NCBI GenBank assembly: GCA_019116285.1
Contig: DXBX01000055.1
Location: forward strand, 1 to 51,612
Direction of reading: 5' to 3'
DNA: 51,612 nt
DNA from: Candidatus Bacteroides merdigallinarum
Lineage (GTDB): Bacteria; Bacteroidota; Bacteroidia; Bacteroidales; Bacteroidaceae
Position 1 is the stretch's first letter; each line of letters opens with the position of its first letter. Under the pieces are notes generated by a model. It did not search any database and was not told where the DNA came from. It saw only the letters and a program-made list of their open reading frames with translations. The position numbers were made by a program, and so were the translations under genes. Shown here one piece after another: positions 8,530 to 33,925 of the stretch.

Positions 8530-8591
8530 AATGAAGGATGAAGAATTGCCGTTGGAAGCGGAGGCTGCTCCACAATTCTTCATCCTTCATT
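8530..8591. terminator. Bidirectional hairpin between thiL and the acyl-AMP ligase
   Basis: A perfect 19-bp inverted repeat (8530-8548 and 8573-8591) with a 24-bp loop separates two convergent units. The ligase stop codon (8580-8582) lies inside the right arm. A short run of T follows on the plus side (CATTTATC). Confidence 0.75.
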
Positions 8592-9908
8592 TATCTTGTA
8601 CGCTTTCCTATCAATCTTCCCGTTATACGTCCGCCGCACGACCTCCACTTGTTCATAGAGGAGCGGTACCTTGTAAGCCTCCAGATGTGCATGAAGCTGA
8701 CGGGCAAGGCTTTGCTTATCCAAGGGTAGATCTTTATCCAACACAACCAGCAACTTCAGTTGATGACCCATCACGGGATGGGGTACACCCACACAGACGC
8801 AATCGCAGACCCCGGACAAAGAAAGTGCCACCTCTTCCACCTCGGCAGGCGAAACCTTGAAACCACCCACGTTGATAACATCATCCCTGCGCCCGGACAA
8901 GTGCAGGCGTCCGTCTGCATCCAATGTCCCCTGATCGTTCGTATAGAGCGTCCCGTTGCGTAGGATAGAGGCCGTTTGTTCGGGACTGTCCACATAACCC
9001 GTCATCAGTGTCTCTCCCTGACAGGCCACCGTACCTTCGGGCGTTATGAACACCCGCGAGTGCTTCATCGGACGTCCCAGGCATCCGGCTTGGCAAAGGC
9101 CGTCGTTGTAGTTGTGCGTACAAAGGATGCCCGTCTCGGTAGAAGCGTATGTATTGTACAGACGGCTATGGGGCAACAGACGGCAAAGGTGCTCCATATC
9201 GGCCTGTGCCATAGGGGCCGCCCCCGTCTCAATGAATACGATCCGGTCGGCACAACCCGCCAAGCGGTCGGCACCCAGCGTCATCAACATACGCAGGGCG
9301 GCTGGCACCAAAAACGTGGCATACCGCCCCGGGGCCTCCAACAGAGAAAAGAAAGCGTTCAGGTCTTTCAGCCCATCCAAGATATGCAGGGTACCTCCCG
9401 TCAGGAGGACAGGCCACACCTTGGAGAGGCTTCCTATGTGATTCAACGGACCGCTGATGAGGAAGGTCAACTCCGATGAGAAGCCTTGTGCCTCCGCCAG
9501 ATTCTCCGCATCGGCCAGAAGAGCCTTGTGGGACAGCATCACGCCTTTGCTCTGTCCCGTAGTGCCCGTAGTGAAGAGAATGTCCGCCACCCCGTCGGGG
9601 ATATCCGCCCTGTCCGACAGGCGTTCTATTTCCCGATAACGCCCGTCTGGAATATCCCGCTCCAAAGGTACGGCCACTCCTCCCGCCAGATGTGTGGCAA
9701 GATAATCCACCAGGAAAGCAGCATCCTGCGTGGCACGTATCAGCCGCGCATGACCCGAGCACAGGCCTTCGGCCACCAACCGACCGGCACATTCCCGGAC
9801 TTCCTGCCACAAGCGGGCATAGGTCAAACTCGCATCGGACGCGATGACGGCAAGTTTGTCCGGATGTTGTCCGGCATGGAGACGGAGATAATCTTCGAGT
9901 TGCATCAT
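8580..9908 (-). CDS. Acyl/aryl-AMP ligase (ANL superfamily)
   Basis: A 442-residue adenylating enzyme that probably activates a carboxylic acid, perhaps an aryl starter such as 4-hydroxybenzoate, and passes it to the ACP encoded just upstream. Motifs in order are the ATP loop LFTTGTTGQSKGVMLSHK, YASTETGIL, GRRDDVINVGGFKVSP and the C-terminal lysine region YNGKIDRKAYK. It is short for the superfamily, as in stand-alone ACP ligases of aryl polyene clusters. The start at 9908 (MMQLEDYL) is 10 bp after the ACP stop; 9905 is equally possible. An upstream in-frame start would overlap the ACP heavily. Substrate is inferred, not read from the sequence. Confidence 0.88.
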   Translation of the reverse strand: MMQLEDYLRLHAGQHPDKLAVIASDASLTYARLWQEVRECAGRLVAEGLCSGHARLIRATQDAAFLVDYLATHLAGGVAVPLERDIPDGRYREIERLSDRADIPDGVADILFTTGTTGQSKGVMLSHKALLADAENLAEAQGFSSELTFLISGPLNHIGSLSKVWPVLLTGGTLHILDGLKDLNAFFSLLEAPGRYATFLVPAALRMLMTLGADRLAGCADRIVFIETGAAPMAQADMEHLCRLLPHSRLYNTYASTETGILCTHNYNDGLCQAGCLGRPMKHSRVFITPEGTVACQGETLMTGYVDSPEQTASILRNGTLYTNDQGTLDADGRLHLSGRRDDVINVGGFKVSPAEVEEVALSLSGVCDCVCVGVPHPVMGHQLKLLVVLDKDLPLDKQSLARQLHAHLEAYKVPLLYEQVEVVRRTYNGKIDRKAYKINEG

Positions 9909-9918
9909 ACGTAAAAAA

Positions 9919-10152
9919 TCATTTATCGGGGCACTCCGCCAATTTCCTTTCCACCATCGCCACAATATGATCCAAGTTCTTCAGGTTCTTGGGTGTGGCG
10001 TCAGTATGGTCCAACTTGATGCCGTAGCGGTCGGAGAGCACCATCAAAATGGTGGCTATGCCCAACGAGTCGAGCTCGGCAAACAGAAAATTGGAGTCAA
10101 AGTCTACCAGCGGCAGGGCTTCCTCCAGCAAAGTTTTAATTTCTTCTTTCAT
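9919..10152 (-). CDS. Acyl carrier protein (ACP 1)
   Basis: A 77-residue carrier protein. The phosphopantetheine site is the serine in ELDSLGIATILM, followed by the helix III region YGIKLDHTDATPKNLKNLDHI. It lies between a PlsC-type acyltransferase (ATGA overlap at 10149-10152) and the acyl-AMP ligase, so it is the likely acceptor for the ligase product. It is one of three ACPs in the cluster. Confidence 0.9.
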   Translation of the reverse strand: MKEEIKTLLEEALPLVDFDSNFLFAELDSLGIATILMVLSDRYGIKLDHTDATPKNLKNLDHIVAMVERKLAECPDK

Positions 10153-11147
10153 ACGAATGTGATATTTTGAGGTAAATGAGTGTATTTATCGTAAATCTTC
10201 CGCAAGGGAGACGAGGCGGGTAACGTGTAGGCGCATTCGGGATGCACCAGTGCATCGACCAGGGTATGGACATCCCAGGCATCGGGTCTGGCATCGTCCA
10301 ACACCTCCCGGGCTTTGCACCTCAACCCGACAGAAGCATATAAGCCGATGACCAACGAACGGAAATAAGCGGGTGTTTCCACCCGGCGGCAGATTTCCTC
10401 GTAATGTGTCACATAATAGCGATGCACTTCCCGGCAACGCTCCACATAGCCCGTGCCAAAGTCCGGGTTATCGGGCGATATGCGCCGGTCTATCTCGATA
10501 TGGAAGCCTCCCCGATTGGCGAAAGCTGTACCGACAGGCATCACATGGGCCGCCCCGTGGATAAATACCGGCAAGAGATCGGCTCTGAGCCGCTCTGCCA
10601 GGTAAAAGGCGCCTTTATGAAAACGCTGGATATTGCCATCGGGCGAGCGATGTCCTTCCGGAAAAATAGCAATGGAATAACCTTTGTCCAGGAAGGAACG
10701 ACAATACTCCAGGCGATCGTCCCACCCGGTATCGGACACGGAGAAGCAATCGGCATAGCGCAGGACGGCCGCCACCAGCGGATTGTTCCATACACGGTCG
10801 TGCGTCACCAGCAGGATGCGCGGCGAAAGAATAAAGAGGCACAAGGTGTCCAGCAGGGATTGGTGGTTGCAGATGAGGATGGCCCCCCGACGGAAATCCT
10901 CCCCATACGGGTTATGAACCTGTGCATACAGCCAAGGATGACGCCGCAGATCGAAGCGGAAGAAACGCCACATCGCCCGGTGGTAGCGCTCACGCTTCGC
11001 ATCGGTCTTGCGTCCCAAGGTAAACCAACAGAAACCCAATACACTGCCATACACCAATTGCGATACGTAGACCACGACCGACAAGGCCATGGCCATCACG
11101 CGCCCGATGGTCAACGGCAGGTCAATGTATGGATTGGGACGCTTCAT
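10149..11147 (-). CDS. PlsC-family acyltransferase
   Basis: A 332-residue membrane-associated acyltransferase. An N-terminal hydrophobic segment (about 15-43) is followed by the catalytic NHQSLLD motif (H95-x4-D100) and FPEGHR (162-167), both hallmarks of the glycerolipid acyltransferase family. The core is strikingly similar to the C-terminal domain of the exporter at 15298-18546 (both share RGYSI/KGYSI, IxRFHKGAF and LPV motifs), suggesting duplication. It likely attaches an acyl or polyene chain to a lipid head group. It overlaps both neighbours by 4 bp (ATGA). Confidence 0.87.
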   Translation of the reverse strand: MKRPNPYIDLPLTIGRVMAMALSVVVYVSQLVYGSVLGFCWFTLGRKTDAKRERYHRAMWRFFRFDLRRHPWLYAQVHNPYGEDFRRGAILICNHQSLLDTLCLFILSPRILLVTHDRVWNNPLVAAVLRYADCFSVSDTGWDDRLEYCRSFLDKGYSIAIFPEGHRSPDGNIQRFHKGAFYLAERLRADLLPVFIHGAAHVMPVGTAFANRGGFHIEIDRRISPDNPDFGTGYVERCREVHRYYVTHYEEICRRVETPAYFRSLVIGLYASVGLRCKAREVLDDARPDAWDVHTLVDALVHPECAYTLPASSPLRKIYDKYTHLPQNITFV

Positions 11148-12283
11148 CGTTCAGGACGGAATATAGGATTGGCATAAATACCCAATAGAAAATCGGCTAG
11201 CAGATCTAGGTCACAATTCTCCTCGTAGGGACGCAAAGCCGCCAAGTGGCAAAGAAAAACTTCCTTCTGCTCGGACGTGTAGCAATGGATATATTCGCTC
11301 CGTCCGTAGCGCAGGTCGTGGGCTATATAATTATTGGGCATCAGGCGGTAAGCGTGGTGGATGCGCCGATCGATAAGGTGGGCAACGGCCCGGTGGAAAT
11401 CCCCCTGGGTGCAGCCGTCGTACAGAGCCAGTTCTTCCCGGTGCAAGGGCTCGCAGAAGTGCAGGTGCACCCGCCCTTTGGGTTGCGTGATGCCGGTCAG
11501 AATGCTGTTGACATCCTCGCCGGGCTTCTTGACATAGCGGCCCATCAGCTTTTTCTCGTACAGTTCGAGCGCTTTCAGAATGTCACAAGGCTCCCACTCG
11601 TAACTGATGGCCACCGGGACGATATGCAATTCGTCCAATGCCTCTACCTTGTTGTCCGAACGGCTCAGGCCCAACATCTTGATGACACCCTGGTCCGTCA
11701 GATCCAGACCGTCCTTGGTACGGCCGTTGCGCTGGGCTATCCAGACCGACTGGTGCTTTTCCCGCAAGGTATGCCGGATATACTCGCTCAGATGGGCCGA
11801 GGCACAATAGAACTCGCGAAGATTGTTGCCGGGGCGCTCCACGCGGAACATCTTATTGGCTTTGCCTATGTCTACGATAAGCGGACTTTGCATCAGGTTG
11901 GCACCGAAGGTAATCTCACTGGTCTCGTGCCCGTTGTTATAAAGTACAAACTCCATCAGGCTGGAGTCCAGCACAATGTCGCGGTGATTGCCGATGAAGA
12001 GGTATCTCCGTTCGGGAGACAGGTACTCCAGTCCGCCCCACGTGAATTCGGTCATTGTACGCCGGATGATCTCCGCATTCATATAGAACATGACCTGCGA
12101 CTGGAACTCGTCAATGGTACGCAGGGACAGGAGCATCCTGCGCACCTCGCCCAGGTCGCGGTCAGGGAAGACATAAGAGGCCAGCAACGGGAAAGTGGTA
12201 CTCTCCGCAATGCGTTGCATGGCCATAGGTATCTCATCATCCCGGTAGGGACGAATGTCATCAAAGGTTCTTGGCTCTTTCAT
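11144..12283 (-). CDS. Large glycerol-acyltransferase-like protein
   Basis: A 379-residue acyltransferase-like protein. The catalytic histidine lies in FIGNHRDIVLDSSLM (His100, with HRDIVLD giving an H-x5-D spacing slightly different from classic PlsC). Further recognisable motifs are ERPGNNLREFY and WIAQRNGRTKDGLD, as in a broad family of membrane-lipid acyltransferases. Start is uncertain: ATG at 12283 (MKEPRTFDD), ATG at 12295 or TTG at 12310. All overlap the upstream FAD-oxidoreductase gene (ends 12261). It and the neighbouring PlsC protein give the cluster several acyl-transfer steps. Confidence 0.83.
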   Translation of the reverse strand: MKEPRTFDDIRPYRDDEIPMAMQRIAESTTFPLLASYVFPDRDLGEVRRMLLSLRTIDEFQSQVMFYMNAEIIRRTMTEFTWGGLEYLSPERRYLFIGNHRDIVLDSSLMEFVLYNNGHETSEITFGANLMQSPLIVDIGKANKMFRVERPGNNLREFYCASAHLSEYIRHTLREKHQSVWIAQRNGRTKDGLDLTDQGVIKMLGLSRSDNKVEALDELHIVPVAISYEWEPCDILKALELYEKKLMGRYVKKPGEDVNSILTGITQPKGRVHLHFCEPLHREELALYDGCTQGDFHRAVAHLIDRRIHHAYRLMPNNYIAHDLRYGRSEYIHCYTSEQKEVFLCHLAALRPYEENCDLDLLADFLLGIYANPIFRPER

Positions 12284-13790
12284 TGTATGCTTCATTAATT
12301 TTCTGTACAATCATACCCCGCCCCACCAGTGCCTCGGCGGTTTCGATGGCCGTCAATGGCACGCCACAGATGCCGTGCAGGTTGATGTTTTGCCCCGTCA
12401 GCAAGAGGTTGCGTACCTTCGTGGCGACAGGCAGTTGAGACAAGGCCATATTCTTACAATCCCGGTTGTAGCCGTAGAGAGCACCTTCCTTCGTACCATA
12501 ATAGTCGCGTATGGTGAGGGGCGTGGATGCCAGGCAGAAGTCGATCTCGGTCCGGATGCCGGGGCAGGCGCATTCCAGCTTATCCAATACTTTTTGCAGA
12601 GTGCGCTCTTTCCAAGCCTTATAGTCGGGCGGACGATGTCCCGTCACGCTGTCCGCCCACTGACTGACAGCACTGAAGGGCATCGGACAGTTCACCGTCA
12701 TGCGCTCCGCCCAAGGTCCTTGCTGATGGGAGGGAGGCGTCAGATACATGAATCCGCGGGGGAAAGTTGCCTCGTCATAGTCGCATAGCTGCCAGACGTG
12801 GCCGTGTTCCTCCTGCCAGTAACAGGGATGGTTCACAAAGGGACGGCGGGCTCCTGCCTTGAACTTGATATAAAGCGAGAAAGCCGAATAAGAATTGGGA
12901 ATCTCACGCAGACGGTCACGGTAGGACTTCAGGAAGGCCTTCTCGGGCAGGAGGTCCAACAAAGTGCAGGGATGCAGGTCCGATATGTACCAGTCGCCGG
13001 AGTATTCCTTGCTATTCCGGGTGATGACACGCTGCACCCGGTGGTCTTCCACATCTATCTTTATCACGGGGTCTCCCGCATGGATGCTCCCGTTTGCCGC
13101 ACGGATGACATCGGCCAAGGCATCGGCCATCTGCTGGCTGCCATCCACGAACATGGCCGAACCATTGATGTAGAGCACATTGATGAGCGCGTGTACAAAG
13201 GCCGGTGTATGGCTCGCCACTCCGCCATACATCGGGTTCATGTAGGCCAGCAACTCTGCCAGGCGTGTGTCCGTGATATACTTTGCGATAAACTCGTCGG
13301 CCGGCAGAAGAAAATCCTCAGAATGAGGACGCAACATGCTTCCTTCGTCCGGACGGAGATAAAACAAGTCCACTTCCTCGCTCAAGGCCCACAAGTCATC
13401 CATGTAGCGGCGTAAGCCGTCAGCCTGGTCCGGGAACAGTCGGGTCAGGTAGTCCGTAAAAGCTTCCTTGCCTCGGGGCATGTGGTAGGTCTCCGTGCCG
13501 AAGGTGACGGCATCCATGCAATCGGTGTCCGTGGCACGGATATCCAGTTTGTCCAAGATACCCAGATAGGTGCAGATGCGGTGCAGATTGTGTCCGGGTT
13601 CGAAGCCACCCAGGACGTGCATCCCCGTCTCGAAGAGGACACCCCGGCGGTGGAAGCATTGCAGTCCCCCGCCGATGATGGGGTTCTTCTCCAACACCGT
13701 CACCCGGTATCCTTCCTTAGCCAGCAGAGCACCGGTGGTCAGTCCGCCCAGGCCACCGCCTATCATAATAATATCTTTTCCTTCGCTCAT
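12261..13790 (-). CDS. CrtI/phytoene-desaturase-like FAD oxidoreductase A
   Basis: A 509-residue flavoprotein of the phytoene desaturase superfamily. The N-terminal Rossmann motif is MIGGGLGGLTTGALLAKEGY, followed by FAD contact RRGVLFETGMHVLGG. The C-terminal signature LLLTGQNINLHGICGVPLTAIETA is typical of the family. Start ATG at 13790 overlaps the stop of the sister gene (ATGA). Its position in a polyene-type cluster suggests desaturation, isomerisation or oxidation of a lipid-linked chain, but carotenoid genes are absent, so its substrate is not a carotenoid on current evidence. Confidence 0.85.
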   Translation of the reverse strand: MSEGKDIIMIGGGLGGLTTGALLAKEGYRVTVLEKNPIIGGGLQCFHRRGVLFETGMHVLGGFEPGHNLHRICTYLGILDKLDIRATDTDCMDAVTFGTETYHMPRGKEAFTDYLTRLFPDQADGLRRYMDDLWALSEEVDLFYLRPDEGSMLRPHSEDFLLPADEFIAKYITDTRLAELLAYMNPMYGGVASHTPAFVHALINVLYINGSAMFVDGSQQMADALADVIRAANGSIHAGDPVIKIDVEDHRVQRVITRNSKEYSGDWYISDLHPCTLLDLLPEKAFLKSYRDRLREIPNSYSAFSLYIKFKAGARRPFVNHPCYWQEEHGHVWQLCDYDEATFPRGFMYLTPPSHQQGPWAERMTVNCPMPFSAVSQWADSVTGHRPPDYKAWKERTLQKVLDKLECACPGIRTEIDFCLASTPLTIRDYYGTKEGALYGYNRDCKNMALSQLPVATKVRNLLLTGQNINLHGICGVPLTAIETAEALVGRGMIVQKINEAYNERAKNL

Positions 13791-15289
13791 TTGTTTGCCT
13801 CCAAGATTTGTTCGTAGATATATTTCGGTGTCAAAAACTCTCCACAAGTCATCATGGTGCCCACGATGACACCCAGCATACCATGCGAGTTGACGTTCTG
13901 CCCCGTCATGAAAACATTAGGGATACGTGTCTTGTGGGGTACCCGCCCGGCACTACCCAAGTTGATGTCCCGCGCTATGCCATAAAGGGAACCACCCTGC
14001 GTACCGGTATAGTCGCGGTAGGTCAAAGGCGTAGAGACATAATAATGCTCAATGCAATCCTTAATGCCGGGAAACTGACGGTCCAACGAGCGGATAAGCC
14101 TCCGGGCCCGTCCGAACACAAAATCCTCATAGTCTGCCCCGCGATGCCCCACTATCGTATCATTCCACGCAGCCAACTCTTCCATGCGCATATAAGTAAG
14201 GATGACACCGGAGCGGGCGAAAGACTGTCCCTCCCGGTCGCAGACATGCATATAGAGGTATCCTTTAGGCCAGGTCTCGTTGTCGTACTGCTCGCATCCC
14301 CACGGAGTATCGGTTTCATATCCGAAGAAGTTGTAGTTCATATAGGGCACCCTGTTTCCCTTGAAATGCAGATAGACAGAGAATCCGCCCACAGTCTGCG
14401 GAATGGCGTTGATTCTTTTCCGGAAAGCGGGACGGATAAGATGCGTGTCGCCCAGCATCTCCATCGTCCGCATGGGATGGGTAGCCGAAATGACATAATC
14501 CGCCAGCAGGTATTCCCCACCATCCACCTCCACCCCAGTGGCATGCGTAGTATCACACACGATACGTGTAACCTTACTGCGTGTACGCACTTCGCCGCCA
14601 TGGCGGGACAGTACCTCCATCAAAGCCCGGACCAAGGCATCACTCCCGCCGACGAAACGGAAAGCACTCTGCCCATAGAAATCCCGAATAAAGGCGTGGA
14701 CGGAGAAGGGGGTCTTGTCTCTTACGGCGGCATAAAGTGGCAAGTCGCCTACCAATACTTTCTGTAACAAGGGATCCGTAATCAATCCTTCCACCACCTC
14801 GTTGACGGAACGCAACTGGTATTCCGCCGTGACTGCGTCATCTGTCTGCCCATACTTCAGCGTATGCAACGACGAAGCGGCAGAGATGCTCTCCACCAGC
14901 CGACAGTAGCGGGCCAGATTATCCTTCTGATCGGGAAAGTCGGCTGCCAGCCTTTCAATGAAAGCCTCACGGCCGTTGGCAAAGTCGAAACGCTGCCCCT
15001 GCAAACAGACCACATTGTAGCGTTCCGGATTCAGGCGCGACAGTTCCATACGGTCGGCAATCTCCAGGTAACGCATCATCCGGTTCAGTATCTGTCCCTC
15101 GTCCGCACTGCCGATGAAGTGCATCCCTGTCTCAAATTTCACGCCGTGACGACTGAAACATTGCAGACAGCCGCCCGGCCATACATTCTGCTCCAGCACA
15201 GTGACCCGGTAGCCGTTCTTGGCCAAGACTACGCCCGACGACAGGCCACCCAGACCACTACCTATAATGATTACTTTCTTTCTATCCAT
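13787..15289 (-). CDS. CrtI/phytoene-desaturase-like FAD oxidoreductase B
   Basis: A 500-residue paralogue of the protein encoded next to it. It begins with the FAD motif IIIGSGLGGLSSGVVLAKNGY, then RHGVKFETGMHFIGSADEG, and ends with FMTGQNVNSHGMLGVIVGT. The two share order and motifs throughout, consistent with tandem duplication, and could form a heterodimer or act in sequence. It starts 8 bp after the exporter-acyltransferase gene and is coupled to the next gene by ATGA. Confidence 0.85.
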   Translation of the reverse strand: MDRKKVIIIGSGLGGLSSGVVLAKNGYRVTVLEQNVWPGGCLQCFSRHGVKFETGMHFIGSADEGQILNRMMRYLEIADRMELSRLNPERYNVVCLQGQRFDFANGREAFIERLAADFPDQKDNLARYCRLVESISAASSLHTLKYGQTDDAVTAEYQLRSVNEVVEGLITDPLLQKVLVGDLPLYAAVRDKTPFSVHAFIRDFYGQSAFRFVGGSDALVRALMEVLSRHGGEVRTRSKVTRIVCDTTHATGVEVDGGEYLLADYVISATHPMRTMEMLGDTHLIRPAFRKRINAIPQTVGGFSVYLHFKGNRVPYMNYNFFGYETDTPWGCEQYDNETWPKGYLYMHVCDREGQSFARSGVILTYMRMEELAAWNDTIVGHRGADYEDFVFGRARRLIRSLDRQFPGIKDCIEHYYVSTPLTYRDYTGTQGGSLYGIARDINLGSAGRVPHKTRIPNVFMTGQNVNSHGMLGVIVGTMMTCGEFLTPKYIYEQILEANK

Positions 15290-15297
15290 TTACTTAC

Positions 15298-20710: not shown

Positions 20711-20773
20711 AAACATTAAACGCGGATTACCCAGCTTTCCGGGGAATATTTGCAAGCTGCGCTGCGGGGAGCC

Positions 20774-20839: not shown

Positions 20840-20860
20840 GCAAAACGGAGTCAGAGGTAA

Positions 20861-21214: not shown

Positions 21215-21220
21215 GGTGCA

Positions 21221-23032: not shown

Positions 23033-23286
23033 TTCGTGCGGTGTTCGGCCACATAGCGGGCCATGGTGTTGATGGACTGGAAGATGGCCTTCCCCTGCGA
23101 GGGATCACTCAATTTGATGCCATACTGCTTCTCCAGCAATACGATGAGTTCGAGGGCGTCTATCGAATCCAAGCCCAAACCGTCACCGAAGAGGGGAGCA
23201 TCGTTGTCAATGTCCTCGCAAGAGACGTCTTCCAGGTTCAATGTCTTGATGATTTGCTGTTTCAGTTCACGAACAAGTTCTTCCAT
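23029..23286 (-). CDS. Acyl carrier protein (ACP 2)
   Basis: An 85-residue carrier protein with phosphopantetheine serine in GLGLDSIDALELIVLL and the acidic surface typical of ACPs (EDVSCEDIDNDAPLFGDG). It lies between two KS fusion genes, 16 bp after one and overlapping the other by 4 bp. It probably holds the growing chain during elongation. Confidence 0.92.
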   Translation of the reverse strand: MEELVRELKQQIIKTLNLEDVSCEDIDNDAPLFGDGLGLDSIDALELIVLLEKQYGIKLSDPSQGKAIFQSINTMARYVAEHRTK

Positions 23287-23302
23287 ATCTGTTTACTTAA
23301 AT

Positions 23303-25063
23303 CTAATTTGCTTGATTGATGATATATAAGGTAGCTTCAAAACGGTCCAGATCGGCCACGTCCAGCCAACCGCCCAACACGCTATGCGTTCCCGGCGCAC
23401 GAAGGGCTTGGGACAGCAGAGATTGGACATCGGCCGGAGTCTCCCGCAAGAGGTAGGTGGTTTCTCCGTGATAATGATTGCGCATGGCAATTTCACCCGC
23501 CACGATATTGGGCAGCGTGTAGATGAAAGCCGAGGGACTGGGGTAGAAATCATCCGCCGACCGGATGGTCTGCTGGTAGGCGCGGTCCGCACATATCGAG
23601 GCACTACGGCCCACCATCACCACGGCGCGGTCTTCACGGGATTGGAAACGAGGAAATCCTTCCACCGCCACCTCCGCCTGCAACAATAATTCGGAGGCCA
23701 AGAACCCCAACTTGCACAAAGGGTCCATCTTGTAAAACTTCGGGTAGTCGCCCACATAGGTATGATACAAGGACTTCAGCAATGCCTGCCCCTGTCCTTC
23801 CACGGGTAGGGAACGGCCGTCCAGCACGGCTTCACGCTCGGTCAAGTGAACGGTATGGGCCGCGCGCTCCGGTCCTACCTCTGAAGTCCGCACCGACGGT
23901 ACAACCGGAATAGTACCGCCCTTACAGAACAGCAGGGCAGCGTTACACCCGCCAAAGCCGGCCATCATCTTCAGGAAAGCCGACCCCGTGACCGGACGAT
24001 GCGCGACAGAGATATTGATGCGGCGGCTGACACCCGGATGCTCGAAACCCTTCGTGGCCAGCACCATGCCATCATCCAGCGCCTCCATGGAAATCAGCGT
24101 TTCCAATACGCCTGCGGCACCCAGCGTATGCCCGAAATAGCCTTTCAGCCCATTGGCAGGAAGGTCGGACAGCCCCATACGGTCGAGGGCCACGGCCTCC
24201 ATCTCGTCGTTGAACAAGGTGGCCGTGCCGTGCACATTGACAAAGGCCAAGCCGGACAAATCCTTTTCCGCAAGCACCGAACGTAAGGCGCAACAAGCTC
24301 CTTCGGCCGTCTTGGAAGGACTCGACACATGGTAGGCATCGTTGCGTACCGCGGCATCCACCACGCTCCAACAACGGGAAGCAACTTCGGACGCTTCATC
24401 CACCAGCCCATATACCACGCAGGCGGCTGCTTCGCCCAGGTTCAGTCCTATCCGGTCCTCATCGAAAGGACGACACGGCTCGGCAGACAACGCCTTGAGC
24501 GACTGGAAGCCACTGACGATGAAAGGCGACAGCACATCTGCTCCAATCACCACAGCCTGTCTGCAACGTCCGGACTCCAAGGCCCGCATGGCTTCCAGTT
24601 GGGCGTCCATGCCCGATATGCAGGCGTTGCACACGACCAGCGGCTCATTGGGATTGCGAAACCAACCGGCCACCTGACGGGCTGCTTCCGTCAGCCCAAG
24701 ATGCCCGGACGGCCAGGATGATCCTTGCCGTTCGTCCAGCAAGTCCACGTTCCCTTTGGTCGTAGCCAAGACGAACAGCACCTCCTCGCTCTCAGGCCGG
24801 ATGTCCGTATCCCGCAAGGCACACACCGCCGCCAGTATCGCCAACCGTTCGAAGCGTGTATAACGGAGGATGTCAATGCCTTCCGTCTGACAGGCAGTCG
24901 CCAGCAACGCATCATCCATCAAAGATGCCACGAACGGTTCGGGCAGTCCCCAAAGGCCCTCGTAACGACGAAGCCGGGTCTTGCCAGCCTTCACCGCCTC
25001 GTAATTGACACGGGTGCCCATGCCGAGCGGCGACACGATGTAATCTGCCAACTTTACTATCAT
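23303..25063 (-). CDS. Beta-ketoacyl synthase with C-terminal chain-length-factor-like half domain (KS-B)
   Basis: A 586-residue relative of the protein encoded at 21221-23032. The KS domain has Cys148 (VVCNACISGM), His278 (VNVHGTATLFND) and His312 (GYFGHTLGAAG), so all three catalytic residues are present although the nucleophile motif is divergent. The C-terminal part (~430-586) has the same Ketoacyl-synt_2-like form (MDPLCKLGFLASELLL, PSAFIYTLPNIVAGEIAMRN). The ATG at 25063 overlaps the thioesterase stop as ATGA; start codons at 25087 and 25075 are less likely. It may pair with the other KS fusion as a heterodimer. Confidence 0.86.
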   Translation of the reverse strand: MIVKLADYIVSPLGMGTRVNYEAVKAGKTRLRRYEGLWGLPEPFVASLMDDALLATACQTEGIDILRYTRFERLAILAAVCALRDTDIRPESEEVLFVLATTKGNVDLLDERQGSSWPSGHLGLTEAARQVAGWFRNPNEPLVVCNACISGMDAQLEAMRALESGRCRQAVVIGADVLSPFIVSGFQSLKALSAEPCRPFDEDRIGLNLGEAAACVVYGLVDEASEVASRCWSVVDAAVRNDAYHVSSPSKTAEGACCALRSVLAEKDLSGLAFVNVHGTATLFNDEMEAVALDRMGLSDLPANGLKGYFGHTLGAAGVLETLISMEALDDGMVLATKGFEHPGVSRRINISVAHRPVTGSAFLKMMAGFGGCNAALLFCKGGTIPVVPSVRTSEVGPERAAHTVHLTEREAVLDGRSLPVEGQGQALLKSLYHTYVGDYPKFYKMDPLCKLGFLASELLLQAEVAVEGFPRFQSREDRAVVMVGRSASICADRAYQQTIRSADDFYPSPSAFIYTLPNIVAGEIAMRNHYHGETTYLLRETPADVQSLLSQALRAPGTHSVLGGWLDVADLDRFEATLYIINQAN

Positions 25064-25479
25064 TCTTCCAACCATTGTTTTTTCCACTCTTCATAGAAGG
25101 GCGGGGTAAACCAGACCAGCTGATACTTGGTATCCGTAAACACCTGCACCGAATGCCCGGTAGCTACCAGACTATTGTCGGCGGTGTCGTGTATCTCGTA
25201 ATCGAATATGATTTTAGCAGCATCGGTGGGACGGTATTTGATGGTGATGGCCGGCTGCATGCCATAGACCAGCGGGCGCTTGTATTGGAGATTCAATTCC
25301 ACCAGCGGGGCAAAATATCCGTTGCGAAACATCTTCATATAGCCCAGATCGTACTTCTTGCCGAAAGCTTCGCGCGCATCCTCGAAGTATAGGGGATATG
25401 ACCCGTGCCACACGACATTCATCGAGTCCACTTCACTGAAGCGGATGTCAAAGGCGATGGTTTCTGTCAGTTCTTTCAT
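25060..25479 (-). CDS. 4-hydroxybenzoyl-CoA thioesterase-like hotdog protein
   Basis: A 139-residue acyl-CoA/ACP thioesterase-like protein. It contains IRFSEVDSMNVVWHGSYPLYFEDARE, the family's active-site region (Asp in EVDSM), and QYKRPLVYGMQPAITIKY. Start at 25479 (MKELTETIAF) is preceded by an overlap ATGA with the dehydratase stop; an in-frame extension upstream is an artefact of the other reading frame. It could release the finished chain, hydrolyse stalled ACP adducts, or supply a free acid. Homologues are usual in aryl polyene clusters. Confidence 0.87.
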   Translation of the reverse strand: MKELTETIAFDIRFSEVDSMNVVWHGSYPLYFEDAREAFGKKYDLGYMKMFRNGYFAPLVELNLQYKRPLVYGMQPAITIKYRPTDAAKIIFDYEIHDTADNSLVATGHSVQVFTDTKYQLVWFTPPFYEEWKKQWLEE

Positions 25480-25904
25480 GGGATGGCAATCTTCATTTCT
25501 GCGGTGGCTATCACTTCTTCGTCCACACGAACCTCGGCATCCACCAACGTCATGCCGAATACCTCTTCCTTCACGCGGATGGTGGTGTCCAAACATTCCC
25601 CCACCCGTGGCGTACGGCGGATATGGAGGTTGTTGACCGCCCCGATAAAGCCAATCTTCACCGGGAGTCCGCTGATAAGGTTATAGTAGCCCAGACGCGC
25701 GGCACAGGTCTGCGCCATGTTCTCAATCAGGCCGGTGGGCAGCAGGCATCCGTCCGACACGAAGAGATGGCCCGGACGGACGAGGAAGCGTGTGGAAGTC
25801 TCTGTCTCATCATAGCGCGTCAGCCCGTCAATCAAGATGAAAGGCGGACGCTGGGGCAATATGTCCAGCGGACTTACGTCCAGAAGTCGTAGAAGTTGAA
25901 CCAT
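25476..25904 (-). CDS. 3-hydroxyacyl-ACP dehydratase-like hotdog protein (ApeP type)
   Basis: A 142-residue hotdog protein with the FabZ-like N-terminus ILPQRPPFILIDG and the active-site region RPGHLFVSDGCLLPTGLIENMAQ, in which His46 and Glu61 can serve as the catalytic pair. It likely removes water from the 3-hydroxyacyl intermediate made by the ketoreductase, giving the trans double bonds of a polyene. The chosen ATG at 25904 overlaps the upstream acyltransferase by 31 bp; no later ATG precedes the conserved LPQRPPF motif. Confidence 0.83.
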   Translation of the reverse strand: MVQLLRLLDVSPLDILPQRPPFILIDGLTRYDETETSTRFLVRPGHLFVSDGCLLPTGLIENMAQTCAARLGYYNLISGLPVKIGFIGAVNNLHIRRTPRVGECLDTTIRVKEEVFGMTLVDAEVRVDEEVIATAEMKIAIP

Positions 25905-26740
25905 TGGGTAGGATATAACTTGATGATGCGTTCCAATTCCGTGGCAAAGCACTGTCCCAACGCAGCGGCATTGTCGCCATGTAGCCGACGGACATAAATC
26001 TTATAGGACTTCACGCCCTCCTTCATGACAAATACGGCCAGCATGGGAACCTCCCGCTGCACAGCCATAGCAAATGGTCCCAACGGGAAACGAGCCTTGT
26101 CCCCCAGAAAGTCACAAGCGATGCTACGTGGCGAACCAAAGATGCGGTCACCCGGCATACTGACCATATCACCTGTCCGCAGGGCCTCACTGAGAATAAA
26201 CACATGCGACATGTCCGAACGGACCGGCACCATGCGTACCTTATGTCCGGTAAAGAGCCTGCTCCGCGATGCCATCACTGTCTCCGTTTCGCCGGCAAAG
26301 ACCAAGGCGTGGAAAGTCTTATGGCGCGGTGTCAGCGAATAGCCTGCCAGCTCGTAATTACCCACATGCGAACTGAGTTGCAGGAAACCGCCCTCGCCAC
26401 TCTCCAACTCGTCGAACACCTCCTGCCCCACCACATCCAACCGGAAGCGATGTCCGGCGTAGGTGGCAAAACGGTCTACAATGATTTGCCCGAAACGGAA
26501 ATGATTGAGATAGACATAGCCGAAAGCCTTCCACGGCGACATCCCGAAGCGGCGACGATAGAACCGGTAGCTGGCCAGATAGCCTTGGTGATGGAACAAC
26601 ATGTAGAACGGCACCATCCACCCCATGCACCAGTAAGGAACATAGAGCGAGGTGTGTCGGAACCACCGTATCAGCATCCGTTGCATCCACGGCGTGCCTC
26701 CCGTCGTCCCTTTCCAGTCAGCGTGCTCCAGTTCGGCCAT
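25874..26740 (-). CDS. Lipid A-type lauroyl/myristoyl acyltransferase (LpxL/HtrB-like)
   Basis: A 288-residue membrane-associated acyltransferase. A hydrophobic segment lies at about 35-55, and the catalytic region is QLSSHVGNYELAG (His with H-x4-E), as in LpxL/HtrB family members. Conserved downstream motifs are VFILSEALRTGDMVSMPGDR, CDFLGDKARFPLGPFAMA and the C-terminal YPTQWFNFYDFW. In this setting it probably acylates a lipid or polyene scaffold rather than lipid A itself. It follows ACP 3 by 9 bp, so that ACP may be its donor. Confidence 0.88.
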   Translation of the reverse strand: MAELEHADWKGTTGGTPWMQRMLIRWFRHTSLYVPYWCMGWMVPFYMLFHHQGYLASYRFYRRRFGMSPWKAFGYVYLNHFRFGQIIVDRFATYAGHRFRLDVVGQEVFDELESGEGGFLQLSSHVGNYELAGYSLTPRHKTFHALVFAGETETVMASRSRLFTGHKVRMVPVRSDMSHVFILSEALRTGDMVSMPGDRIFGSPRSIACDFLGDKARFPLGPFAMAVQREVPMLAVFVMKEGVKSYKIYVRRLHGDNAAALGQCFATELERIIKLYPTQWFNFYDFWT

Positions 26741-26749
26741 CCGGTGTCC

Positions 26750-26995
26750 TCACTTGTTTACCTTGCTTTCGATGTAGTCACAGAACTTGCTGAAGGTATC
26801 CACCCCCTGCATCTCTTCCGGCTTGATCTTGAAGCCGAAGTTCTTGTCTACGATCACCACAATGTCCACGAAGTCCAGAGAATCAATGCCCATGTCGTCT
26901 TTCAGCTTGGCATCGGGCGTGATCTTTTCCTCGTCTATCTCCAGGTCTTCAATGAGAAAGTTGCGTACTTTCTCTTCAATTTCTGTTCTTGTCAT
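26750..26995 (-). CDS. Acyl carrier protein (ACP 3)
   Basis: An 81-residue acidic carrier protein. The phosphopantetheine serine is in KDDMGIDSLDFVDIVVIV. Its helix II region (DFVDIVVIVDKNFGFKI) resembles dedicated secondary-metabolism ACPs. It is encoded directly between the methyltransferase and the LpxL-like acyltransferase. Confidence 0.93.
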   Translation of the reverse strand: MTRTEIEEKVRNFLIEDLEIDEEKITPDAKLKDDMGIDSLDFVDIVVIVDKNFGFKIKPEEMQGVDTFSKFCDYIESKVNK

Positions 26996-27013
26996 ACGTT
27001 ATTGTTTATCTGT

Positions 27014-28114
27014 TTACTTTAGTCTACAAACCAATATGCTGTGTCCGTGTCCCAAGCCATCGTGAATATGCTCTATGACAAGTCCGGCAGCTTCGACACA
27101 CGTTTCCAAGTCTTCTGTATTATACATTTTACTATTCCCGTTGGCAATGGCGGCGAAATAGAGGGAAGTCATGGTCAGAGCCATGACGGCCGGCTCGTAT
27201 TTCTGCCGATCCCACAGGGTCTCCATGATGTAGAGGCGCGTATCGGCCGACATGGCTTCACGAGTTCTCCGCAAGATGCTGACAATCTCGTCCATGCTAA
27301 AGCAGTCCAAGAACTGGCTCATCCAGATGGCGTCCGCCGCAGGCTCCGTGGGGAAATGTTGTGTCTCGTCCAGCAGATTGATGCCATGCCCGCTGATGCG
27401 GTCGGCTCCCGGCTTGCCGGTTATCTGCCGCTCCATCAGGCCTATTTGCTGGGGCAGGTCCAGAATGGTGACCCGCACGTCCTTATCATAACCCACGCAA
27501 CGCAAGGCCCACCGCCCGGTATTGCCCCCCACGTCGAAAAGGGTGCGCGGATGGTAGGTGTCAAAGACGATGTGCAACGCCTCGTCAAAGGAATGGTCGC
27601 TGTAGAAATGGTCGAAGGCGAGCCACGATTTCTGCACTTGTCCGGGCAAACTGGACAACCCCTCGTACACCGTGGGCCAATCGCCAAAGTGGCGCAATCC
27701 CTCCGGCTTCCCATTCACCAAGGATTCCTCCAGGCAAAACCATCCTTCGTAGTTGACATCGTGATTAAAGTCCATGTCCACCCGCGTGGCAGGGTCCACC
27801 AACAAAAACCAGCCGGTCTTGGCCAATGTATAGCGCTCCGTTTCCACATCCACCAACACCGTACCTATGCTGAGCGAAGCCTCCAACAGGCACTTCATGG
27901 CATAATCGCCCAAACCTGTCTTGGCACATAGCTCGGCGCGTGTCAGACCTTCCGCGCTATCGCGCAACGCTTCCAATACACCGTGCTTCAGCATAATGCG
28001 CGTGGCTTGGAAGATGGCCGGCCCCCAGGCAATGAACTGTGCCCGGAGTTGCGCCTCGTGGGCGGAGAGGCGGTCTTCGGTGTAGGCTTTCTGCAAGGAA
28101 GGAGACAGTTTCAT
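27014..28114 (-). CDS. SAM-dependent O-methyltransferase, hydroxyindole/caffeate O-MT-like
   Basis: A 366-residue enzyme with an N-terminal winged-helix dimerisation domain (LKHGVLEALRDSAEGLTRAE) and a C-terminal Rossmann domain with SAM motif LFDVGGNTGRW (192-202). The usual acid/base area is QFLDCFSMDEIVSILRR. It probably methylates a hydroxyl on an aromatic head group, as methoxyaryl groups are common in aryl polyenes. Its ATG overlaps the upstream stop by one base (TAATG). Confidence 0.88.
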   Translation of the reverse strand: MKLSPSLQKAYTEDRLSAHEAQLRAQFIAWGPAIFQATRIMLKHGVLEALRDSAEGLTRAELCAKTGLGDYAMKCLLEASLSIGTVLVDVETERYTLAKTGWFLLVDPATRVDMDFNHDVNYEGWFCLEESLVNGKPEGLRHFGDWPTVYEGLSSLPGQVQKSWLAFDHFYSDHSFDEALHIVFDTYHPRTLFDVGGNTGRWALRCVGYDKDVRVTILDLPQQIGLMERQITGKPGADRISGHGINLLDETQHFPTEPAADAIWMSQFLDCFSMDEIVSILRRTREAMSADTRLYIMETLWDRQKYEPAVMALTMTSLYFAAIANGNSKMYNTEDLETCVEAAGLVIEHIHDGLGHGHSILVCRLK

Positions 28115-28686
28115 TACTTCTCTACAGATTTAAGCAGGCCGTCGGCCAAGTAACGGTACACACTGATGGCACGTGCCCGAAAGACGGGTGCCATCAAGCC
28201 TTTCACCTCGGCAAACTCAAACTCGCACTTCGTCTCACCCGTGGCATTGTCCACCAACTGCATCGTGCCTTCTATCTGAGCGCCACCGGCCTTACGACTC
28301 ATGCCCCATATCATACCGCCGGCATTGCCCACGTTCATCAAGGCCACCTTGACGTTCAAGGTATAGGCGGCTTGCGCGGTCGAGTCAGAAGTCACGGTCA
28401 AAAGCACCTTGCGCTTCTTCTCATTAAAGTATGTGATAAAACTCTCGTGGGCACGGTCTAAGTCATCCACGAACTTCGCATACTCGCCCTCGCCCTTGGC
28501 ACCATAATATTCGTCAGCTGTCTGGTCACGGCGATCAATCATGGTTTTGTGGTCATCTATCAACACACGCACGGTTGCCTCGGTGAAGAAAATGTCCTTT
28601 TCGCCCTTCACCAACTTAACGGGATTGCCCGCCTGCAAAGCGACAACTCCCATTAGCAATGCCATTACTAAGATAACTTTTCTCAT
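28114..28686 (-). CDS. Secreted protein of unknown function
   Basis: A 190-residue protein with signal peptide MRKVILVMALLMGVVALQAG. The mature part is a mixed alpha/beta domain with FFTEATVRVLIDDHKTMI, QLVDNATGETKCEFEFAEV and a C-terminal helix FRARAISVYRYLADGLLKS. No family was recognised with confidence; it resembles small periplasmic proteins that accompany lipid-export genes. Its spacing of 20 bp from the KS gene and overlap with the methyltransferase place it firmly in the cluster unit. Confidence 0.78.
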   Translation of the reverse strand: MRKVILVMALLMGVVALQAGNPVKLVKGEKDIFFTEATVRVLIDDHKTMIDRRDQTADEYYGAKGEGEYAKFVDDLDRAHESFITYFNEKKRKVLLTVTSDSTAQAAYTLNVKVALMNVGNAGGMIWGMSRKAGGAQIEGTMQLVDNATGETKCEFEFAEVKGLMAPVFRARAISVYRYLADGLLKSVEK

Positions 28687-28706
28687 ATCATTCTATTTTA
28701 TACGTC

Positions 28707-29939
28707 TTATACGTCAGAAAGATTTCGGATGATCAGCGCACTGTTCGTCCCCCCGAACCCGAAGCTGTTACTCAATACCGTATTCACCTCGGTATCCACG
28801 GTTGTAGCGGTCAGGTTCAGGCGGTCGGCATACTCATCGGGGTGCTCCAGGTTGATGTTGGGCGCCACGAAATGATGGCGCATCATCAGGATGGAGTAGA
28901 CTATCTCGCTCGCGCCAGCCATCCAGCATTCGTGTCCGGTCATGGATTTGGTGGAGCTGATAAGTGCGTGCTTTCCTTCGAAAAGACGAACCAAAGCCTT
29001 TGCCTCGAACATGTCTCCCTGAGGAGTAGACGTGGCGTGCGCATTGATATAATCTATATCGTCGGGCGACATCCCCGCATCCTCCATGGCGCGTGTCATG
29101 GCAATGACGCATCCCTCATCGCTGGGCTGGGAAATCCCTCCCCCATTGCTGGAGAAGCCATAACCTACCACCTCGCACAGGATATTCGCTCCCCGCGCCT
29201 TGGCGTGTTCATATTCCTCCAGCACCAGAGCTGCCGCTCCTCCACTGGGCACCAGGCCGTCGCGATCCTTGTCGAAGGGGCGGCTGGCCTTGGTCGGCTC
29301 GTCCATACGGGTGGAGAAAGCACGAAGCGCGTCAAACGATGCCATGGAGTAGTAATTGGTCTCCTGCGCACCTCCACACAATATGGTATCCTGCAAACCC
29401 TGCTTGATGAGCAGATAACCCAAACCGATGGAGTGACTTCCGCTGGCGCAGGCCGCGCTGACAGTAAAGTTGACACCCCGCAGACGGAAGATGGTGCTGA
29501 GATTCATGTTGACGGTGGAGTTCATCGACTGGAAAACCAGGCCATAGCCCAGCATCTCCGTATCATGCTTCTCATCCATGATGCGGGCCGACTCCACCAC
29601 CGGCTTGGCCGAAGAGTCATTGCCGAAGATGCAACCTACCTCATTTGCGGCCAGATAATCCGCGTCCATCCCGGCCATTTGGAAAGCCTGCCGGCCGGCC
29701 ATGAAGGCATATTCAGCCTCCTCGGACATGCCAGCGCGAATGTGCCGTTCGATATCCTTCTTGGTTATCACCGGCTTCGCCACCTTGCCCACCAGGCCGG
29801 AGCGATAGCCGTATGCGAGACGGTCCTCGTCGAGGCCTATCCCGGAAGTGCCGTTGTAGAGCGCTTCCCGGACGGTCTCCACATCCGTCCCCAGGCACGA
29901 CCAAATGCCGATGCCCGTTATCACGACTCGTCTTGACAT
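28707..29939 (-). CDS. Beta-ketoacyl-ACP synthase, FabF-like (KS-C)
   Basis: A 410-residue stand-alone KAS I/II-type enzyme with the full triad Cys164 (VSAACASGSHS), His301 (INAHATSTP) and His336 (KSMTGHECWMAG). It lacks the C-terminal half domain found on the two other synthases of the cluster. The start ITGIGIWSCLG is standard. It sits between the ketoreductase and a secreted protein, each 20 bp away. It resembles the ApeO/ApeR type synthases of aryl polyene clusters, used for chain extension. Confidence 0.92.
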   Translation of the reverse strand: MSRRVVITGIGIWSCLGTDVETVREALYNGTSGIGLDEDRLAYGYRSGLVGKVAKPVITKKDIERHIRAGMSEEAEYAFMAGRQAFQMAGMDADYLAANEVGCIFGNDSSAKPVVESARIMDEKHDTEMLGYGLVFQSMNSTVNMNLSTIFRLRGVNFTVSAACASGSHSIGLGYLLIKQGLQDTILCGGAQETNYYSMASFDALRAFSTRMDEPTKASRPFDKDRDGLVPSGGAAALVLEEYEHAKARGANILCEVVGYGFSSNGGGISQPSDEGCVIAMTRAMEDAGMSPDDIDYINAHATSTPQGDMFEAKALVRLFEGKHALISSTKSMTGHECWMAGASEIVYSILMMRHHFVAPNINLEHPDEYADRLNLTATTVDTEVNTVLSNSFGFGGTNSALIIRNLSDV

Positions 29940-29959
29940 CTGCTTGCTATATATATTAA

Positions 29960-30691
29960 TTAGGTGTACAATCCTCCGTTGATGGAGATTACCTCGCCCG
30001 TGATGTAGGCGGCTTCGTCCGACAGCAGAAAGCCGGCCAGGGCGGCCACTTCCTCCGGGCGACCGAAACGGCCCACGGGTATCATCTTCTTCAGCTCGTC
30101 CTGCGGCAAGTCCTTGGTCATATCGGTATCAATGAAACCGGGCGCAATGGCGTTGACCGTCACTCCGCGCGGAGCCACTTCCTGTGCCAATGCCTTGGTG
30201 GCGCCGATGAGGGCCGCCTTGGCCGCACTGTAGTTGGTTTGTCCGGGCAACCCCTTCAGGCCCGACAACGAAGACATATTCACGATGCGTCCCCCGTGCT
30301 TGCGCATCATCATCTTGGGAAGCAGACGCGAAGTCACATAGAAGAAGCCGTTCAGCGTGATGTCCAGCACGTCGTGCCAATCCTGCTCCGGCATCATAAA
30401 CATCATGCCGTCGCGCCGGATACCGGCGTTGTTCACCAGATAGGCGATGTAATCGTCCGGATGAGCCTCCTCCCAACGGGCAAGCGCCTCATCCACTTCC
30501 TGCTTCACGCTGACGTCGAAACGCAACAATTCGGCCGAAACGCCTTCCGCCTCGACCAGTGCCTTCACCTCAAGGGCGGCGGCCTCGTTCGACTGATAGT
30601 TTATGAGTACGGGGATTCCCATCTTGGCAATCTTCAGGCAGACAGCCCTGCCCAAGCCGCGCGAACCTCCGGTTACAAGTGCATACTTCAT
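29960..30691 (-). CDS. fabG: 3-ketoacyl-ACP reductase, FabG-like (cluster ketoreductase)
   Basis: A 243-residue short-chain dehydrogenase that reduces 3-ketoacyl-ACP with NADPH. Motifs are TGGSRGLG (7-14), NNAG (87-90) and the catalytic Ser141, Tyr154 and Lys158 (NMSSLSG, NYSAAKAA). The ATG at 30691 (MKYALVTGG) was chosen because the extra 35 residues upstream show no conserved character. It is the first gene of the first cluster unit, about 62 bp downstream of a TACTTTTG promoter element. It is probably specific for the cluster rather than the general FabG. Confidence 0.92.
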   Translation of the reverse strand: MKYALVTGGSRGLGRAVCLKIAKMGIPVLINYQSNEAAALEVKALVEAEGVSAELLRFDVSVKQEVDEALARWEEAHPDDYIAYLVNNAGIRRDGMMFMMPEQDWHDVLDITLNGFFYVTSRLLPKMMMRKHGGRIVNMSSLSGLKGLPGQTNYSAAKAALIGATKALAQEVAPRGVTVNAIAPGFIDTDMTKDLPQDELKKMIPVGRFGRPEEVAALAGFLLSDEAAYITGEVISINGGLYT

Positions 30692-33923: not shown

Positions 33924-33925
33924 GG

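What the first reader, a model, noticed from the sequence alone, without database searches (positions are those of the whole stretch)
8580..30691. Two-unit aryl-polyene-like lipid cluster with unusually heavy acyl-transfer and flavoprotein content
Seen: three KS genes, three ACPs, KR, two hotdog proteins, thioesterase, acyl-AMP ligase, methyltransferase, GT2, LolA, MMPL exporter, four acyltransferase domains and two CrtI-like flavoproteins, with many ATGA overlaps. Known: aryl polyene clusters have the KS, CLF, ACP, DH, KR, ligase, LolA and MMPL core. Inference: the product may be a polyene attached to a complex lipid. The absence of DarA/DarB-type genes argues against a dialkylresorcinol or flexirubin product in this window.
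Basis: partly seen in the sequence, partly recalled or inferred. Interest (0 to 1): 0.7.

Follow-up and report, generated by a model that had tools for sequence, protein, structure and literature searches.

The report
Pigment-lipid cluster with swapped starter module
A genome close to gut Bacteroides carries a 23-gene cluster predicted to make a polyene pigment attached to an outer-membrane lipid; the two enzymes that normally start such pigments from tyrosine were not found in it, and a carrier-protein and ligase pair, which among 93 related genomes occurs exactly in those without the usual ligase, likely takes over that job.

Summary
In detail: 23 same-strand genes at 8580-30691 with all the named functions. 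The family is common: related loci abound in Bacteroidales, and a rumen survey counted 2,800 "aryl polyene" clusters. FlxJ and LolA2 are flexirubin-cluster orthologues; 15 of 23 proteins match the E. coli aryl polyene cluster. The flavoproteins and acyltransferases are shared with relatives, so neither is unusual.

What is unusual is initiation. Tyrosine ammonia-lyase (FlxA), 4-coumarate ligase (FlxY) and DarA were not found in this genome (80.6% complete). Instead the cluster ends with a third carrier protein (ACP3) beside an AMP ligase with no detectable similarity to FlxY. In 93 genomes carrying FlxJ, 76 have FlxY, 17 have ACP3, none both, none neither; the last 65 were tested after the idea was formed. 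ACP3 and ligase are neighbours in all 17, and none of these has FlxA. On a FlxJ tree the ACP3 state needs three changes.

Best reading: ACP3 plus ligase replaces the tyrosine/coumaroyl-CoA starter module with a carrier-bound starter acid. The replacement is inferred from distribution; substrate and product are untested. New variant of a known kind.

The parts
29960..30691 (-). KR, 3-ketoacyl-ACP reductase (ApeQ-like)
   Evidence: Pfam adh_short 3.5e-55; 44% to E. coli ApeQ; GxxxGxG and YxxxK
28707..29939 (-). KS1, stand-alone ketosynthase (ApeR-like)
   Evidence: Pfam KS; 37% to ApeR; Cys-His-His intact
28114..28686 (-). protein of unknown family (190 aa), likely secreted
   Evidence: no Pfam or NCBIfam hit; N-terminal signal-like stretch read by eye
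27014..28114 (-). FlxJ-family methyltransferase
   Evidence: NCBIfam NF053543, 568.3 bits against cut-off 560; 44% to ApeB
26750..26995 (-). ACP1 (ApeF-like carrier protein)
   Evidence: Pfam PP-binding 1.8e-12; 39% to ApeF
25874..26740 (-). LpxL-like acyltransferase (like one half of ApeJ)
   Evidence: Pfam Lip_A_acyltrans 6.5e-14; 27% to ApeJ
25476..25907 (-). dehydratase, hotdog fold (FabZ/ApeP-like)
   Evidence: NCBIfam FabZ 1.5e-9, below cut-off; weak blastp hit to ApeP, E 0.001
25060..25479 (-). thioesterase, 4HBT (ApeK-like)
   Evidence: Pfam 4HBT_2 2.6e-13; 30% to ApeK
23303..25075 (-). second ketosynthase with a C-terminal extension (called CLF in my scripts)
   Evidence: Pfam KS N and C; Cys-His-His intact; two separate genes in some relatives
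23029..23286 (-). ACP2 (ApeE-like carrier protein)
   Evidence: Pfam 1e-10; 52% to ApeE
21221..23032 (-). KS2, ApeO-type ketosynthase fused to an ApeC-like domain
   Evidence: Pfam KS and Ketoacyl-synt_2; C-terminal part to ApeC 2.4e-9
20861..21214 (-). small EamA/ArnE-ArnF-like putative flippase
   Evidence: Pfam EamA 9.4e-11; NCBIfam ArnF 9e-14, below cut-off
20034..20678 (-). LolA2-type periplasmic carrier
   Evidence: NCBIfam LolA2_flexi 205 bits against cut-off 125
19601..20056 (-). LolB2-like protein
   Evidence: NCBIfam LolB2_flexi E 3e-4, 20.6 bits, below cut-off 60
19237..19617 (-). dehydratase, hotdog fold (ApeI-like)
   Evidence: Pfam ApeI-like 1.7e-5, below its cut-off; 29% to ApeI
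18543..19268 (-). GT2 glycosyltransferase (like one half of ApeJ; PpgS-like)
   Evidence: Pfam 1e-24; NCBIfam PpgS 3.3e-22, below cut-off; 35% to ApeJ
15298..18546 (-). MMPL exporter fused to a PlsC-type acyltransferase (ApeM plus ApeD-like)
   Evidence: Pfam MMPL and Acyltransferase; ApeM and ApeD hits
13787..15289 (-). FAD1, CrtI-like flavoprotein
12261..13790 (-). FAD2, CrtI-like flavoprotein
   Evidence: Pfam; 33% to FAD1
11144..12310 (-). AT2, long acyltransferase with an atypical His-X5-Asp motif (start uncertain)
   Evidence: Pfam Acyltransferase 4.8e-6; motif read from the sequence
10149..11147 (-). AT1, PlsC-type acyltransferase (ApeD-like)
   Evidence: Pfam 6.2e-18; 31% to ApeD
9919..10152 (-). 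ACP3, third carrier protein, the mark of the swapped starter module
   Evidence: Pfam PP-binding 2.4e-5; in 17 of 93 FlxJ genomes, exactly those without FlxY
8580..9908 (-). stand-alone AMP ligase beside ACP3
   Evidence: Pfam AMP-binding 8.3e-41; invariant ligase motifs in 9 orthologues; next to ACP3 in all 17 ACP3 genomes; no significant blastp match to FlxY

Best explanation
This 23-gene cluster is predicted to make an aryl-polyene-type lipid of the outer membrane, and its dedicated pair of carrier protein ACP3 and AMP ligase likely starts the polyene, in place of the tyrosine ammonia-lyase FlxA and the 4-coumarate:CoA ligase FlxY of flexirubin clusters. Proposed steps, all inferred except where said: the ligase adenylates a free carboxylic acid (most likely aromatic, not an amino acid) and loads it on ACP3. 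KS1, the KS2 fusion, KR and the two dehydratases extend it with malonyl units to a polyene on ACP1/ACP2. FlxJ methylates the head group. The flavoproteins adjust the double bonds. GT2, the LpxL-like enzyme, AT1, AT2 and the acyltransferase on the exporter build it into a glycolipid. The EamA-like protein, MMPL exporter, LolA2 and the LolB2-like protein carry it to the outer membrane. Shown here: the gene set, the failure to find FlxA, FlxY and DarA in the genome, and the strict alternation of FlxY and ACP3 among the relatives sampled.
For: Family membership of the parts; E. coli comparison. Own genome: no FlxY (best 146 bits, 29% identity, against at least 438 bits in the 19 of 28 genomes that have it); its only PF00221 gene (298 bits against the FlxA cut-off of 700) lies among histidine-degradation genes; DarA none. 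Alternation: first 28 genomes, FlxY in 19, ACP3 in the other 9. Second set of 65 (68 found at order level, less three already used): FlxY over the cut-off in 57; ACP3 then found at 110 bits or more in exactly the remaining 8. FlxA-type lyase in 62 of 76 FlxY genomes and 0 of 17 ACP3 genomes. Ligase next to ACP3 in all 17. FlxY's activity was shown in vitro (PMC3992019, abstract, first part and passages). ApeH loads 4-hydroxybenzoate directly on an ACP (PMC8253772 passage), so ACP-bound initiation has a precedent.
Against: No substrate is known. The ligase's nearest solved structures by fold are tied and of mixed substrate (proline, o-succinylbenzoate, 4-coumarate, malonate). ACP3 has no counterpart in the E. 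coli cluster and the ligase only a weak one (ApeH, 19.5 bits). Five FlxY genomes also gave weak carrier-protein matches to the ACP3 model (22 to 41 bits), which I read as ordinary ACPs without further test. Alternation shows functional equivalence only indirectly, and related genomes are not independent: the tree needs only three changes of this state. The FlxY genomes without FlxA (14 of 76) show that FlxA loss alone does not demand ACP3. The genome is 80.6% complete. Clusters without FlxJ were not sampled.
Confidence: 0.6

Rival explanations
1. ACP3 and the ligase load a different building block (the second acyl chain or a head-group acid), while the aryl starter is activated by some other enzyme of the cell.
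For: The ligase resembles acyl and NRPS-type ligases in general; the cluster has several acyltransferases needing acyl donors; two reduced clusters in which the second KS unit, TE and the LpxL-like gene were not found still keep ACP3 and ligase (L280, L281).
Against: Strict alternation with FlxY, which in vitro makes CoA esters of 4-coumarate, cinnamate and a few related acids.
Confidence: 0.2
2. An ordinary flexirubin-type cluster whose FlxA, FlxY and Dar genes lie in the missing fifth of the genome.
For: The genome is only 80.6% complete; in Chitinophaga the Dar genes are a separate cluster from flxA-flxY (PMC3992019).
Against: FlxA and FlxY are missing in all 17 ACP3 genomes, 12 of them at least 90% complete; in 13 of the 16 FlxY genomes whose regions were read FlxY lies in the cluster region, and the window shows 8.5 kb and 20.9 kb beyond the two ends of this cluster.
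Confidence: 0.08
3. The aromatic ring is built from the polyketide chain itself: a polyene is isomerised, cyclised and oxidised by the CrtI-like flavoproteins, in the way hypothesised for cinnamoyl peptides of Streptomyces.
For: No aryl-acid source was seen in the cluster; two CrtI-like oxidoreductases are present; polyene-to-benzene chemistry is hypothesised for skyllamycin-type clusters (PMC6510318 passage).
Against: CrtI-like genes also occur in clusters with FlxA: 15 of the 21 named FlxA-type loci and G238, G226, G253, G330, G202 and G297, so they do not track the loss of the tyrosine route; no isomerase was recognised.
Confidence: 0.05
4. The cluster makes a conjugated fatty-acyl glycolipid without any aromatic group.
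For: The starter is unknown and the transport and lipid genes are those of a lipid pathway.
Against: A FlxJ/ApeB-type methyltransferase is kept (568 bits); head-group methylation is reported for the E. coli aryl polyene and for flexirubin (PMC8253772 passage).
Confidence: 0.07

Closest known systems
Flexirubin cluster of Chitinophaga pinensis / Flavobacterium johnsoniae (flxA-flxY; BGC0000838/839 as named in PMC9248904)
   Same: Compared through FlxA-type relatives (G238, G226, G253, G118, G330), not through the two named strains: same KR, KS, ACP, FlxJ, DH, TE, KS units, LolA2, GT2, MMPL exporter and mostly a CrtI-like gene
   Different: FlxA, FlxY, DarA, DarB, the C45-type gene and the deacetylase of those relatives gave no match in the window; EamA-like gene, AT1/AT2, second CrtI-like gene, ACP3 and another ligase are present
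Aryl polyene (APE) cluster of E. coli CFT073 (apeA-R)
   Same: Window homologues of ApeB, C, D, E, F, H, I, J, K, L, M, O, Q, R at phmmer E below 1e-6 in this set of 18 proteins; ApeP only by blastp at E 0.001
   Different: ApeJ is split into two genes, ApeO and ApeC fused; ACP3, AT2, EamA-like, the 190-aa protein, LolB-like and both flavoproteins have no credible E. coli match; ApeA, ApeG and ApeN not matched
Rumen Prevotella 'aryl polyene' clusters counted by antiSMASH (PMC8241843, passages)
   Same: Same kind of host and, from the named loci L084-L163, same gene family
   Different: The passages give counts and expression; I saw no description there of starter genes or product

Membership tests
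Aryl polyene gene cluster family | Type II KS, ACP, KR, DH core | tested here: met
Aryl polyene gene cluster family | LolA-type chaperone and MMPL/RND exporter | tested here: met
Aryl polyene gene cluster family | AMP ligase for the aryl starter | tested here: inconclusive
   a ligase is present with a weak ApeH hit; substrate unknown
Aryl polyene gene cluster family | aryl polyene product | not testable with these tools
   needs chemistry
Flexirubin cluster | tyrosine ammonia-lyase FlxA (NF053541) | tested here: not met
   own genome 298 bits against cut-off 700, a histidase by its neighbours; genome incomplete
Flexirubin cluster | ligase FlxY (NF053551) | tested here: not met
   best hit in own genome 146 bits, 29% identity to FlxY of G238; genome incomplete
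Flexirubin cluster | dialkylresorcinol genes darA/darB | tested here: not met
   DarA: no match in own genome; DarB: none in the window, rest of the genome not searched
Flexirubin cluster | FlxJ methyltransferase and LolA2 | tested here: met
   both over NCBIfam cut-offs
Cinnamoyl-type polyene PKS | isomerase plus desaturation step beside a type II polyene PKS | tested here: inconclusive
   no isomerase recognised by Pfam/NCBIfam, but one gene has no family; CrtI-like genes could desaturate

The most novel reading that the evidence does not exclude
Gut Bacteroidales have a third way to start aryl polyenes: besides tyrosine-derived coumaroyl-CoA (FlxA/FlxY) and chorismate-derived 4-hydroxybenzoyl-ACP (ApeH), a private carrier protein (ACP3) is charged by its own ligase with an aryl acid taken from the gut (for example phenylacetate, benzoate or a plant phenylpropanoid), so the pigment lipid in their outer membrane is built on host or diet chemistry.
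Probability: 0.3. Interest if true: 0.65.

Novelty: new variant of a known kind. Interest (0 to 1): 0.5.

Why it matters
[quoted passage not shown] The FlxY/ACP3 alternation gives a simple genetic label that splits these clusters by how they begin, predicts different head groups, and names the two proteins to assay. The 14 FlxY genomes without FlxA make a second testable prediction, that some species must take up hydroxycinnamates, or get them another way, to make their pigment.

Tried and rejected
Idea that a mobile element had cut FlxA away from the cluster here: the integrase stands just upstream of KR, where FlxA stands in relatives, and the own genome's one PF00221 gene ends at a contig edge. 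Rejected: that gene lies among genes that read like the histidine-degradation operon, and 27 of 48 assessable named loci also lack FlxA next to KR. I read the ORFs upstream of KR in 7 of these 27 only; the closest, L084, shows what reads like a polyribonucleotide nucleotidyltransferase gene there.

Idea that the second flavoprotein replaces FlxA: rejected, both flavoproteins occur with FlxA in L097.

A viral-contig search with FAD1 found nothing. A protein search with FAD1 gave 3175 relatives, the best 120 listed, the few named ones from Bacteroides, Muribaculaceae, Paraprevotella and Prevotella MAGs. Fold search of the ligase gave tied ligases of mixed substrates, so no substrate was read from it. 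Literature searches (listings) showed no description of this starter type; beyond the listings I saw passages of PMC9248904, PMC8241843, PMC8253772, PMC6510318, PMC6469967, PMC12144888 and PMC11885536, and the outline, first part and passages of PMC3992019. Only PMC3992019 holds at least two of the words FlxA, FlxY, flexirubin as whole words in that library, which holds open-licence PMC papers and no preprints. The solved structure of the Xenorhabdus aryl polyene lipid (galactosamine-phosphate-glycerol) is recalled by me and was not readable here; PMC8253772 says only that it was solved. The reading of GT2 as making an amino-sugar carrier is therefore a lead, not a result.


Full report
What is there. 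The window is one whole contig (C37, 51612 bases) of an unnamed, 2.7 Mb, 80.6% complete genome in 93 contigs. The named locus closest to its cluster is from Candidatus Bacteroides pullicola (90% in the KS used as query; 84-99% across the 18 genes seen there). Twenty-three genes run on the minus strand from 30691 down to 8580, with gaps of at most 182 bases and 13 of 22 junctions overlapping, 6 of them by exactly 4 bases. All three ketosynthases keep the Cys-His-His triad, so the gene I called CLF is not an inactive chain-length factor by that test; all three carrier proteins keep the serine motif. KS2 carries an ApeC-like C-terminal domain (phmmer 2.4e-9), so an ApeO-ApeC pair is fused here.

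Which family. FlxJ scores 568.3 bits (cut-off 560) and LolA2_flexi 205 (cut-off 125); LolB2_flexi is below its cut-off. Against the E. coli CFT073 aryl polyene cluster (fetched; gene letters taken from the Table in PMC8253772, by order), 15 of the 23 window proteins hit an Ape protein by phmmer at E below 1e-6 in this set of 18 proteins: ligase-ApeH (4.6e-7, only 19.5 bits), AT1-ApeD, MMPL protein-ApeD and ApeM, GT2-ApeJ, DH_I-ApeI, LolA-ApeL, KS2-ApeO (and ApeC), ACP2-ApeE, CLF-ApeO, TE-ApeK, LpxL-like-ApeJ, ACP1-ApeF, FlxJ-ApeB, KS1-ApeR, KR-ApeQ. The second dehydratase hits ApeP only at E 0.001 by blastp; ACP3, AT2, both flavoproteins, EamA-like, the 190-aa protein and LolB-like have no credible E. 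coli match.

How common. FlxJ itself was found at E below 1e-60 in 22 of 151 family genomes and 68 of 393 order genomes. A rumen survey counted 2,800 aryl polyene clusters in 8,160 genomes (PMC8241843, passages). The cluster as such is therefore ordinary, and the flavoprotein and acyltransferase content is shared with relatives (at least one CrtI-like gene in 18 of 23 regions, two in 8 of 23, one of those a partial gene; regions cut at contig ends counted as they are).

The difference. In flexirubin clusters FlxA makes 4-coumarate from tyrosine and FlxY makes its CoA ester, both shown in vitro (PMC3992019, abstract, first part of the text and passages). FlxA stands beside or near KR in relatives such as G238, G226, G253, G118 and G330. 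It is absent there in the window. Of the 80 named loci, 21 have a FlxA-like lyase, 27 lack it with at least 2.5 kb seen upstream of KR, and 32 could not be judged. In the own genome the only lyase found is a histidase by its neighbours; FlxY was not found, nor DarA. DarA absence is not peculiar to this type: G238, G330, G297 and G118, which have FlxA, also gave no DarA match, and the ACP3 genome G415 does have one. Instead of FlxY the 3' end of the cluster has ACP3 and a second type of AMP ligase, which has no significant blastp match to FlxY (E 0.04 or worse).

The test. In the first 28 FlxJ genomes (22 from the family, 6 from the class), FlxY scored 438 bits or more in 19, and the other 9 scored at most 154; ACP3 was found in exactly those 9. 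I then drew 65 further genomes at order level. FlxY was over its cut-off in 57, lowest 611 bits, others at most 227. ACP3, searched afterwards with an alignment, was found at 110.6 bits or more in exactly the other 8. Five of the 57 also gave matches at E below 0.001, at 22 to 41 bits, which I read as ordinary carrier proteins. Together: 76 FlxY only, 17 ACP3 only, 0 both, 0 neither; Fisher p 6e-19 if genomes were independent, which they are not. The ligase stands next to ACP3 in all 17: the window and eight loci and eight; also in the named loci L113 and L156 (the L156 ligase stretch contains a stop). FlxA (or a lyase clearly of its kind) is in 62 of the 76, counting three genes broken at contig ends (G765, G727, G489), and in 0 of the 17 (Fisher p 1.5e-10 with the same caveat). 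In a FlxJ tree of the 93 (quick method, 34 of 90 inner branches starred) the ACP3 state needs 3 changes, at least 2 forced by starred branches, and FlxA presence 9. One genus code (g223) holds both states, but its FlxY member G696 lies far from its ACP3 members on that tree, so the whole cluster may have been exchanged there.

Limits. Sampling required FlxJ, so clusters without it are not counted. The E. coli names were assigned by order. The genome is incomplete. The two named flexirubin producers were not compared directly. The product, its colour and its lipid are unknown.

Noticed in passing
window 31027-38377: Directly upstream of the cluster: tyrosine integrase (31027-32214), nucleotidyltransferase (32388-33266), HU-like protein (33453-33923), Mob_Pre relaxase (34288-35529), EamA transporter (36558-37511) and a gene that reads like an AraC regulator (37508-38377): looks like a mobilisable element beside the pigment cluster.
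   Followed up: partly
L184/L185 (G415): An ACP3-type genome carries DarA-like (36%) and DarB-like (49%) genes just after FAD1, so a dialkylresorcinol ester may be combined with the ACP3 start.
   Followed up: no
G299, G318, G343, G381, G397, G407, G412, G426, G440, G443, G565, G590, G643, G696: 14 FlxY genomes gave no FlxA; they would need 4-coumarate from outside or another source.
   Followed up: partly
L280 (G498), L281 (G826): Stretches in which the second KS unit, TE, a dehydratase and the LpxL-like gene were not found still hold KS1, KS2, FlxJ, ACP1-3 and the ligase: perhaps a natural minimal set.
   Followed up: no
L140, L151: Tannerella forsythia, a mouth bacterium, holds the core of the cluster (KR, ACP1, LpxL-like, FlxJ, DH, TE, KS, ACP2) without a KS1 match in the stretch seen.
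   Followed up: no
window 11144-12310: AT2 has HRDIVLD in place of the usual His-X4-Asp acyltransferase motif (read).
   Followed up: no
window 45781-46926 and 47849-48814: A 381-aa protein without a Pfam hit near a Schlafen/AlbA_2 protein.
   Followed up: no
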